Below, in pieces: positions 17,572 to 19,798 of a stretch of 28,536 bases of DNA. Position numbers and translations under genes: made by a program. Position 1 is the stretch's first letter. Every line of letters starts with the position of its first letter. The notes beneath the pieces are model-generated. The model saw nothing but the letters and a program-made list of their open reading frames with translations. It made no database searches and was not told where the DNA came from. This stretch comes from a virus. The DNA is taken from the IMG/VR virus record IMGVR_UViG_3300050821_012041, positions 1 to 28,536 of that record. One strand, given 5' to 3'.

Positions 17572-17784
17572 TTATTTTATCTTCGTCAAGCTGTCTAAAA
17601 ACTTTATTTGCTTCTTGAAAACTTTGTGTTCCGTTCTTATAATTGCAATAGCTTTTGGATCGTGGTCAAAACGACAATTGATACATTGGTATCGTTCTTT
17701 CATTTTAGGTGTAAAATGATGAAAGAAGCTAAAATCCCATCCACCAGTTTTCTTGCAAACGCAACATTTATAAGTTTTTGTCAT
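17572..17784 (-). CDS. Small zinc-finger protein coupled to the endonuclease
   Basis: A 70-residue protein starting inside the last codons of the GIY-YIG gene (ATGA overlap at 17781-17784), so translation is probably coupled; no separate ribosome binding site is seen. C-x2-C motifs at residues 7/8-11 (YKCCVCKK) and 34-37 (YQCINCRF) are spaced like a zinc ribbon. The rest is basic (HKVFKKQIKFLDSLTKIK). Possible nucleic-acid binding; partner function with the endonuclease is speculation. Confidence 0.6.
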   Translation of the reverse strand: MTKTYKCCVCKKTGGWDFSFFHHFTPKMKERYQCINCRFDHDPKAIAIIRTEHKVFKKQIKFLDSLTKIK

Positions 17785-18494
17785 ACTAAAATTAGTTTTT
17801 TGGCCTTATCTTTCTGCCATCTGGCTTTGTCTCGACATTTATGCGAACAAAATTTGGCGTTTTGCCCTTTCACAGTAAAAACAATGCCACACCATTGACA
17901 AACAAGCTCTCTTGGAAGTTGGTTTTTTCTAACTACTTTCAAATTTGCTTTTTGTTCTTCTGTCCATATATTACCCAATGGACTAAAGGCTGTTTTGTAT
18001 AAATTGTAACCAATATGCCTTTCGTAAGGTTTATATAAATTTAAATAATATTGTTCTCTAACTACAAGATCTTTCTCTTCGGCAACTTCTAAAATTTTAA
18101 ATTGGAAAGCCTTTTCACCGTATTTGTTCCACGCTTTCTGCAATTTGTCATTCTCATGTCTATTACCATAAAACTTGTGTACGTGCTCTTTCCATCGTGC
18201 CTCAATATCTTTGGAAGAACCTATGTAAATCATATTGTTAACAATATTAATGATAATATAAACACCTGACAAAGCGTATTCAACAAAAGTTAAAGATTGC
18301 ACCAATTTTGTTCTCTGTTCTGAAAAAGCTTTCTTTACTTCATCTACCGTTGGGCGATTTCGTAATTCGGCCTTCATATTTAATTTATATTTAGTTTGAT
18401 ATTTACCCCAACATCTTTGAGTACAAAATCTTTTATCTAGTTGTTTGGAGGTAACTTCAAACTCAATTGGGCAACCTAAGCATTTTCGTTTCAT
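17781..18494 (-). CDS. GIY-YIG endonuclease with flanking zinc fingers
   Basis: A 237-residue protein. An N-terminal zinc finger (C5, C8, C24, C28: CLGCPIEFE and FCTQRCWGKY) is followed by the GIY-YIG domain: G77-V-Y79, Y90-I-G92, catalytic Arg100 and metal-binding Glu147 (VVREQYYLNLY), with WNKYGEKAFQFKI between. A basic linker and a C-terminal zinc ribbon (LVCQWCGIVF and AKFCSHKCRD) complete it. It lies outside the group I intron, 91 bases beyond the stop codon of capsid exon 2. Such intron-adjacent endonucleases are known to mobilise ORF-less introns (collaborative homing). Transcription is probably from its own promoter, which leaves almost no leader. Confidence 0.88.
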   Translation of the reverse strand: MKRKCLGCPIEFEVTSKQLDKRFCTQRCWGKYQTKYKLNMKAELRNRPTVDEVKKAFSEQRTKLVQSLTFVEYALSGVYIIINIVNNMIYIGSSKDIEARWKEHVHKFYGNRHENDKLQKAWNKYGEKAFQFKILEVAEEKDLVVREQYYLNLYKPYERHIGYNLYKTAFSPLGNIWTEEQKANLKVVRKNQLPRELVCQWCGIVFTVKGQNAKFCSHKCRDKARWQKDKAKKLILV

Positions 18495-18584: not shown

Positions 18585-18614
18585 TTAGCTAACGACGATT
18601 TTAACAATGCCCTT
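18585..18614 (-). CDS. Major capsid gene, exon 2 (last nine codons)
   Basis: AAG GGC ATT GTT AAA ATC GTC GTT AGC TAA, encoding KGIVKIVVS and stop. It is in frame with exon 1, which ends after codon 313 at 18860. Its first five bases (AAGGG) pair with CCCTT of the intron guide (P10), which fixes the 3' splice site after the G at 18615. The capsid protein is 322 residues after splicing. Confidence 0.8.
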   Translation of the reverse strand, partial: KGIVKIVVS

Positions 18615-18859
18615 CTTTGGTTGTTACTTTCTCTATTGAGAAGGATTTCACATTTCTGGAAACCTCTCCACATTTCTGTGAAGGTCGGACTATAACTTCA
18701 TCCTTTCGGAGTCGGGCGTTTAGTCTCTACGGATACTTGAAACTTCTCAAGTCTTTCCTCGGTATTGTCTTCAACATTACTTGGTAAGAGTTTCACCGAT
18801 ACGGCCCAATTTTACTACGCCAAGGGTAATTAAGAAACTACGATTTTTACTATCGATTT
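18615..18859 (-). ncRNA. ORF-less group I intron in the capsid gene (245 nt)
   Basis: Self-splicing ribozyme elements, minus strand. P1: exon CTACGCT (18866-18860, ending in U) with guide GGCGTAG (18821-18815), giving the U-G pair at the 5' splice site. P10: CCCTT (18826-18822) with the start of exon 2. P3: TTGGGC (18809-18804) with GCCCGA (18717-18712). P4: TCGGT/ACCGA (18795-18799 and 18759-18763). P6/P6a: ACTTGA/TCAAGT (18731-18758). P7: GACTA (18725-18721) with TAGTC (18692-18688), inside AGAGACTA and AAGTTATAGTCC, close to the R and S consensus. P9 CTTCACA-GAAA-TGTGGAG (18666-18683) and two more hairpins follow. The last base is G. P2 and P7.1/P7.2 extensions are absent. No ORF inside except the first 30 bases, which extend the capsid frame. 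Confidence 0.88.
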
Positions 18860-19798
18860 AGCGTAGCGAATCAAGAAGCCTATATCTTCCCAGATTGCGA
18901 AAATATCTGCCATCTGATTCACATCTTTCATCGTCTCAACGGAAATATCTGTACGAACGGCGAGAACGCCGAGATAATCCGCAGGAGCTAGAACGTATGT
19001 GTTAGCTGTAGGAACAACGACGGACTCTAGGACATCAACGCCCCAGATTCCACCTACGCGACCTGCTTTCAATGCCATATCCTGGAAGTTAGGAGCGAAA
19101 ATTCCGGCTCCGCCTGTTCCTGATGTGGTTGTATTGAAGAGCATGAGATCAGCGGTTCGTAGTGGATTCAAATAAATCTTTGAAGCTACGAGCAACTTTG
19201 AACGTAGAGTAACGATACCCGTTACGAGGGTCTGCATGTCCAACTTACCAGTCGTGGTTAGCACGGTTGGGTTATTGGTTGCAGCGGAGGTTCCTGCTAG
19301 TGAGTTCACTGGGGTCTGATTTGTTAGACCAGCAGCGAAGTCGATGAGCTGAAAACCCTTTGTGTCTTCTTGAAGCATAATGGAAGCCTTCGCACGTTCT
19401 TGGGTACGATTAAGAACATCATACTTGCGGAAGTTTGATTCGTTCCAACGGATCAAGGGACGGGTTGCTAGTGGGCCTGTTTCGACGCGGATACGATCTG
19501 CTTCAACCTGGAGTTCCTGTGGCAAACCATGTACGGAAATGGATGCGGCTGGAACGTCTAGATCTGCATCAAATACGGCTTCCTCGCCTAGCGCGAGTTT
19601 GTACGTCTGGAACAACTGGCGAATACGACCTTCGTATAGAAGTTCGCGCTTTAGAGGGCTCAACATTTGCTGAGCGATCTTCTGCAATCCACCTGGGCTG
19701 TTCATCAGACGAGTTAGCTTTTCTTCAACCTGAGCGGCACTAAGCCCTGCGGCGTAGATGTCATCAGGAGAAGCGGTTTTGGTAACTTGTTCTGACAT
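18830..19798 (-). CDS. Major capsid protein (exon 1 plus intron-encoded C-terminus)
   Basis: A 322-residue protein with AAGGAG close before the ATG. Its place after terminase, portal, protease/scaffold and decoration genes, its length, and its more GC-rich, optimised codons mark it as the major capsid protein, most likely HK97-fold. Recognisable stretches: GLPQELQVEADRIRVETGPL, IDFAAGLTNQTPVNSLAG, KIYLNPLRTADLMLFN, SVETMKDVNQMADIFAIWED. True exon 1 is 18860-19798 (313 codons, ending LIRYA). Reading on into the intron adds KSIVKIVVS and a stop; splicing to 18585-18614 adds KGIVKIVVS. Both forms have 322 residues and differ only at residue 315 (Ser or Gly). The intron-borne stop lies three bases before the guide sequence, keeping ribosomes out of the ribozyme core. 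Confidence 0.85.
   Translation of the reverse strand: MSEQVTKTASPDDIYAAGLSAAQVEEKLTRLMNSPGGLQKIAQQMLSPLKRELLYEGRIRQLFQTYKLALGEEAVFDADLDVPAASISVHGLPQELQVEADRIRVETGPLATRPLIRWNESNFRKYDVLNRTQERAKASIMLQEDTKGFQLIDFAAGLTNQTPVNSLAGTSAATNNPTVLTTTGKLDMQTLVTGIVTLRSKLLVASKIYLNPLRTADLMLFNTTTSGTGGAGIFAPNFQDMALKAGRVGGIWGVDVLESVVVPTANTYVLAPADYLGVLAVRTDISVETMKDVNQMADIFAIWEDIGFLIRYAKSIVKIVVS

What the first reader, a model, noticed from the sequence alone, without database searches (positions are those of the whole stretch)
18585..18866. Group I intron that encodes a replacement C-terminus for the capsid protein it interrupts
The intron splits the capsid gene after codon 313. Reading from exon 1 into the intron gives AAA TCG ATA GTA AAA ATC GTA GTT TCT TAA (KSIVKIVVS). 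The real exon 2 is AAG GGC ATT GTT AAA ATC GTC GTT AGC TAA (KGIVKIVVS). The proteins have equal length and one difference, while the DNA matches at only 20 of 30 positions, including Ser TCT versus AGC, which share no base. This argues for selection on the protein rather than a fresh duplication. Splicing is therefore nearly neutral to the phage: full-length capsid is made either way. The coding extension is the loop of P1, and its stop lies three bases before the guide. I know of introns placed in essential phage genes, but not of one that carries such an amino-acid mimic of its 3' exon.
Basis: partly seen in the sequence, partly recalled or inferred. Interest (0 to 1): 0.95.

Follow-up and report, generated by a model that had tools for sequence, protein, structure and literature searches.

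The report
Phage intron copying its downstream exon
A self-splicing intron sits nine codons from the end of a bacteriophage capsid gene and begins with its own recoded, in-frame copy of those nine codons, so nearly the same capsid protein is encoded whether or not the intron is removed; mobile introns carrying such copies are known from fungal mitochondria, but I found none described in a virus of bacteria.

Summary
On the minus strand a 245-nt group I intron (18859-18615) splits a phage-G-like major capsid gene after codon 313. Rfam Intron_gpI scores 44.9 bits, E 2.9e-10. P1, P10 and the terminal G are in place, and the core covaries with sibling introns. Near-identical intron-less capsids (L001, L002) end RYAKGIVKIVVS*, exactly the predicted spliced product. 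The first 30 intron bases read in frame as KSIVKIVVS*, matching exon 2 at 8 of 9 residues and 20 of 30 bases. Chance and a fresh duplication are excluded. An independent contig (L007) has the same arrangement; sibling introns at other sites lack a mimic. Intron-bearing genomes also carry a free-standing GIY-YIG nuclease gene, missing from the two intron-less ones. The single amino-acid change falls where the copy would otherwise extend P1 and compete with P10.

Most likely the copy is a sister allele's 3' end captured during homing and kept as a fail-safe against incomplete splicing. Capture is well supported; splicing, use of both products and continuing selection are untested. The principle is known: Tremella mitochondrial introns begin with an analogue of the following exon. 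New here are the phage host, the minimal P1-loop form and the near-perfect mimic.

The parts
18860..19798 (-). Exon 1 of the major capsid protein gene, codons 1-313
   Evidence: family: phage G gp27, 6wkk; annotated major capsid proteins
18615..18859 (-). Group I intron, 245 nt, ends in G
   Evidence: Rfam RF00028 44.9 bits, E 2.9e-10, just under the gathering score of 50; boundaries from P1, P10 and intron-less alleles
18830..18859 (-). C-terminal mimic KSIVKIVVS plus stop, the 5' part of the P1 loop, in frame with exon 1
   Evidence: identical 30/30 in L007
18860..18866 (-). 5' strand of P1 in exon 1 (CUACGCU, U at the splice site)
   Evidence: pairs with 18821-18815; duplex energy
18815..18821 (-). 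Guide, P1 part (GGCGUAG), forms U.G at the 5' splice site
   Evidence: sequence
18822..18826 (-). Guide, P10 part (CCCUU), pairs with exon 2 AAGGG at 18614-18610
   Evidence: sequence; duplex energies
18656..18813 (-). Catalytic core P3-P9
   Evidence: 38 proposed pairs over 6 sibling introns: 96% paired, 13 pairs with changes on both sides, 0 of 500 shuffles reach this
18585..18614 (-). Exon 2, KGIVKIVVS plus stop
   Evidence: protein identical to intron-less L001/L002
17781..18494 (-). Free-standing GIY-YIG endonuclease gene just downstream, probable homing partner
   Evidence: Pfam PF01541 E 2.5e-12; no relative found in intron-less G001/G002, 91% identical copy beside the intron in L007

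Best explanation
A small mobile group I intron, probably spread by the neighbouring free-standing GIY-YIG nuclease, sits nine codons from the end of the capsid gene. Its P1 loop holds a recoded copy of those nine codons and a stop. Spliced mRNA encodes ...RYAKGIVKIVVS and unspliced mRNA encodes ...RYAKSIVKIVVS, so capsid is made from either. The copy is the 3' end of a sister capsid allele, captured when the intron homed with an irregular 5' junction. It is kept because it removes the cost of incomplete or late splicing of the most demanded phage mRNA, and because a ribosome can finish inside P1 without entering the catalytic core. Its DNA has to differ from exon 2 so that the guide does not pair it in P10 fashion and, probably, so that the homing nuclease does not recut the occupied site. 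Shown: anatomy, mimicry, intron-less end point, flank signature of homing. Inferred: splicing, use of both products, selective retention, nuclease target.
For: Intron: Rfam match, core covariation across siblings, perfect P1 and P10, and intron-less alleles equal to the predicted spliced product. Mimic: chance 1.3e-10, and 5e-6 for keeping at least 8 of 9 residues through 10 random changes. Sister-allele origin: the ending VVS occurs only in this clade; relatives end TLP, SIT, TIS, NIT, DIS and so on. Tolerated Ser: intron-less relative L187 has KSIVRIDIS. RNA constraint: the mimic changes all three G of the P10 target AAGGG (to AAATC); predicted pairing with the guide falls from -22.4 (exon1-exon2) to -13.8 kcal/mol (exon1-mimic), and this accounts for the only amino-acid difference. 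Homing: excess divergence from intron-less L001 in the last 120 coding bases (18/120 against 46/849, p 5e-4; L007 p 2.6e-5), not between the two intron-bearing alleles (p 0.2); the nuclease gene co-occurs with the intron (2 with, 2 without). Maintenance of the ribozyme: window and L007 differ only in loops, in a wobble pair of P9 and near the 3' end. Negative controls: sibling introns at other sites carry no mimic.
Against: Only two alleles carry the mimic and they are identical over it; at the intron's overall divergence, zero changes in 30 is not surprising, so selection after capture is not demonstrated. If read-through capsid is fully functional, splicing should decay, yet the core is intact; this could mean that splicing still matters or that the insertion is recent. 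No RNA or protein data. The nuclease's target is unknown.
Confidence: 0.5

Rival explanations
1. Captured relic: the mimic is a leftover of an irregular homing or recombination event that joined a recipient's intact capsid 3' end to the donor's P1 loop. The intron splices efficiently, exon 2 supplies the real C-terminus, and the mimic has no function and is too young to have decayed.
For: Explains equal length, silent divergence and clade-specific VVS without selection inside the intron; sister alleles already differ by 6 of 30 silent bases; mimic identical in both alleles; flank signature of homing.
Against: TCT against AGC and the TCG codon need several changes beyond those seen between known sister alleles, with the reading frame kept; the loss of all three P10 G fits adjustment within an active intron.
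Confidence: 0.3
2. Dead intron with a vestigial exon 2: the gene is now exon 1 plus mimic, transcripts are not spliced, and intron plus exon 2 are a downstream remnant, as reported for five of six comparable Tremella insertions.
For: Tremella precedent: one of six was a true intron, three were retained in cDNA, two were downstream sequence (PMC7315562). The ORF 18830-19798 is complete.
Against: P1, P10, the core and the terminal G are intact in both alleles, all differences between them avoid core helices, and exon 2 still encodes the exact intron-less C-terminus with one silent change between alleles.
Confidence: 0.15
3. Chance similarity or assembly artefact.
For: None found.
Against: p about 1.3e-10; same structure in a second, divergent contig L007.
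Confidence: 0.005

Closest known systems
Tremella fuciformis mitochondrial introns with duplicated host-gene fragment (PMC7315562)
   Same: [quoted passage not shown] proposed to be imported and to replace the exon. cDNA shows both spliced and unspliced cases.
   Different: Fungal mitochondria; the two introns whose sizes are given are about 2.1-2.2 kb; copies 72.5% and 81% similar. Here a phage, a 245-nt ORF-less intron, a 9-codon copy inside the P1 loop with 8 of 9 identity and equal length.
Homing-endonuclease insertions with alternative C-termini (Allomyces and Phlebia atp6, Phlebia cox2, Ophiostoma rps3; discussed in PMC4019555)
   Same: A mobile element near a gene's 3' end brings or restores a C-terminus while the old 3' end lies downstream.
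   Different: Described as insertions with an upstream copy in use and a displaced downstream copy; here an intact ribozyme would join the downstream copy exactly and both routes encode a full-length protein.
Phage capsid and tail introns of mycobacteriophages LittleE and BAKA (PMC3706429)
   Same: Introns in virion structural genes, spliced in infected cells; U before the 5' site, G at the 3' end; one (BAKA, 265 bp) lacks a nuclease gene.
   Different: No mimic of the 3' exon is reported in the passages read.
Collaborative homing of phage introns by free-standing nucleases (from general knowledge; reviews PMC2988022, PMC3984707)
   Same: ORF-less intron next to a free-standing nuclease gene.
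   Different: Nuclease cleavage of the intron-less capsid site is untested here.
Engineered home-and-rescue gene drives (e.g. PMC7968924)
   Same: Element in an essential gene carrying a recoded rescue of the target's coding sequence (analogy only).
   Different: Synthetic CRISPR constructs; no relation by descent.

Membership tests
Group I self-splicing intron | Conserved catalytic core P3-P9 | tested here: met
   RF00028 44.9 bits, E 2.9e-10, below the curated 50-bit cut-off, but L007 47.2, L137 60.8 and L138 (in the L051 contig) 58.9 bits; 13 of 38 pairs covary
Group I self-splicing intron | P1 with U.G at the 5' splice site, P10, terminal G | tested here: met
   CUACGCU/GGCGUAG; AAGGG/CCCUU; last intron base G
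Group I self-splicing intron | Removal restores the intron-less gene | tested here: met
   Spliced product ends RYAKGIVKIVVS, as in L001/L002, which differ from it at one residue elsewhere
Group I self-splicing intron | Self-splicing activity | not testable with these tools
   needs RNA
Intron with duplicated host-gene fragment (Tremella type) | 5' part of the intron encodes an in-frame analogue of the following exon | tested here: met
Intron with duplicated host-gene fragment (Tremella type) | Absent from intron-less alleles of close relatives | tested here: met
   L001, L002
Intron with duplicated host-gene fragment (Tremella type) | Common descent with the fungal elements | not tested
   No reason to expect it; similar arrangement only
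Collaborative homing intron | Free-standing nuclease gene linked to the intron and missing with it | tested here: met
   present in window and L007, no relative found in G001/G002 (possibly incomplete records); only two of each
Collaborative homing intron | Nuclease cuts the intron-less allele and not the intron-bearing one | not testable with these tools
   needs protein

The most novel reading that the evidence does not exclude
A natural fail-safe intron: a phage parasite of an essential, highly expressed gene that carries a recoded rescue of its target's C-terminus, maintained by selection, so that neither splicing nor its timing costs the phage, and recoded so that guide RNA and homing nuclease ignore the copy. 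It would be a natural counterpart of an engineered home-and-rescue drive, and invisible to gene finders because the interrupted gene looks intact.
Probability: 0.35. Interest if true: 0.8.

Novelty: new variant of a known kind. Interest (0 to 1): 0.62.

Why it matters
Group I introns are rare in bacterial protein genes, partly because translation follows transcription and can disturb ribozyme folding; an in-frame stop early in the intron is thought to help (PMC3984707). This intron suggests a further solution: let the ribosome finish a usable protein inside the intron. It gives a concrete, testable case of how a mobile intron can settle in one of the most expressed genes of a virus, and it warns that introns near gene ends can hide behind apparently intact reading frames.

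Tried and rejected
More alleles were sought with three intron patterns, the nuclease protein, the capsid profile and a degenerate pattern for the C-terminus: only L007 shares the mimic; genome contigs gave no relative. AlphaFold of the capsid from a 16-sequence alignment was poor (mean pLDDT 38), so the C-terminal strand it shows was not used. L005 downstream sequence resembled a P8-like hairpin by eye but has no Rfam match. Other 8/9 tail repeats in the scan were spurious reverse-strand frames. A distant relative as source of the mimic was rejected: no relative matches it above 21 of 30 bases, and the VVS ending is confined to this clade. Eight literature searches returned no phage precedent; the library holds only openly licensed papers, so this is weak evidence of absence.

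Full report
Observation. The window is a fragment of an uncultured tailed phage. The gene on the minus strand at 18830-19798 is a major capsid protein: a profile of its relatives matches the phage G capsid gp27 (6wkk, E 6e-35) and annotated major capsid proteins of phage G and mycobacteriophages. Reading the minus strand, the ORF runs into a group I intron. Exon 1 ends CTACGCT and pairs with GGCGTAG in the intron with the usual U.G at the splice site. The five bases before that guide, CCCTT, pair with AAGGG at the start of exon 2. The intron ends in G. Rfam gives Intron_gpI at 44.9 bits, E 2.9e-10, slightly under the curated cut-off; the copy in L007 scores 47.2, and sibling introns L137 and L138 score 60.8 and 58.9. 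Across six sibling introns my proposed P3-P9 helices keep 96% standard pairs, with 13 of 38 pairs changed on both sides and no shuffle or slid register coming near. Intron 18859-18615 is 245 nt.

The mimic. The first 30 intron bases continue the capsid frame as KSIVKIVVS and stop; exon 2 encodes KGIVKIVVS and stop. Eight of nine residues and 20 of 30 bases agree. A random read-through would do this with p about 1e-10, and random change of 10 of the 27 sense bases of exon 2 would keep eight residues with p about 5e-6. Near-identical intron-less capsids L001 and L002 end RYAKGIVKIVVS, the exact spliced product, and more distant relatives nearly all have KGI at the same place. L007, a 151-kb contig from another sample whose capsid DNA differs by 5.7%, has the same intron and the same 30 bases.

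Where the copy came from. The ending VVS is found only in this clade (window, L007, L001, L002), while other relatives end TLP, SIT, TIS, NIT, DIS, TVS and others. The copy therefore derives from the clade's own gene. Yet it differs from both known clade alleles by 9-10 bases. Because the two real 3' ends (exon 2 and L001) already differ by six silent bases, a sister allele captured with its own silent differences explains most of the divergence. The remaining special feature is codon 2, TCG for GGC/GGT. With the silent AAG to AAA change beside it, this removes all three G of the P10 target. The exon1-mimic junction pairs with the guide at -13.8 kcal/mol against -22.4 for exon1-exon2. An unmodified copy would extend P1 through the splice site and compete with P10. 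I infer that the one amino-acid change is the price of RNA function, and it is a mild one: intron-less relative L187 has Ser at that position (KSIVRIDIS).

Mobility. Divergence from intron-less L001 rises in the last 120 coding bases for both intron-bearing alleles (p 5e-4 and 3e-5) but not between them, as expected when flanks are co-converted with an incoming intron. A free-standing GIY-YIG gene (17781-18494) lies just downstream in the window and in L007, and no relative was found in the contigs of L001 and L002. The intron lineage occurs at other sites, always with about 241-248 nt between the splice-site probes used: twice in the capsid gene of L051 and in the portal gene of L137/L204 and L202. 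Read-through there gives unrelated tails. In L203 a related core lies in another structural gene and was read only by eye. The mimic is not a general property of the lineage; the window site, nine codons from the end, is one where a complete replacement fits in a P1 loop.

Mechanism. I favour a fail-safe: ribosomes that reach the intron before it folds finish a full-length capsid inside P1, and spliced messages yield the standard protein. The ribozyme core is unchanged between the two alleles, with differences confined to loops, a wobble pair in P9 and the 3' tail, so splicing has probably been kept. What is not shown is that the copy has been under selection since capture; two alleles with identical mimics cannot tell retention from youth. 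The relic and dead-intron rivals therefore stay open.

Comparison with what is known. Tremella fuciformis mitochondria contain six insertions that begin with an analogue of the following exon; cDNA showed one to be a real intron, three to be retained in cDNA and two to be downstream sequence (PMC7315562). Related C-terminal replacements are discussed for atp6, cox2 and rps3 in fungi (PMC4019555). Spliced introns in phage capsid and tail genes are known (PMC3706429). The arrangement here is a new variant: in a phage, reduced to the P1 loop of a 245-nt intron, equal in length and nearly identical in protein to exon 2.

Noticed in passing
L051:5493-6060: The capsid gene of this contig seems to be interrupted by two group I introns, with only a 27-nt (9-codon) exon between them.
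   Followed up: partly
L137:1500-3199 (same contig as L204): The portal-like gene carries a sibling group I intron and, further on, a long in-frame insertion that looks like an intein by eye.
   Followed up: no
L141:1440-1570 and 1564-2499: A group I-like match (25 bits) within the 5' part of a related capsid gene, next to an ORF of nuclease-like look.
   Followed up: no
window:248-877: A second GIY-YIG gene whose start overlaps the end of the upstream gene 837-1514 by about 40 bases; its effect on that gene's C-terminus was not examined.
   Followed up: no
L003:4413-5110: A different putative nuclease-like ORF occupies the position just after the capsid gene of an intron-less relative, suggesting a hotspot.
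   Followed up: no
L051:5761-5798: The P1 loop of the second L051 intron has the same length (38 nt) as the window's, without a mimic, so the mimic may have replaced an existing loop.
   Followed up: partly
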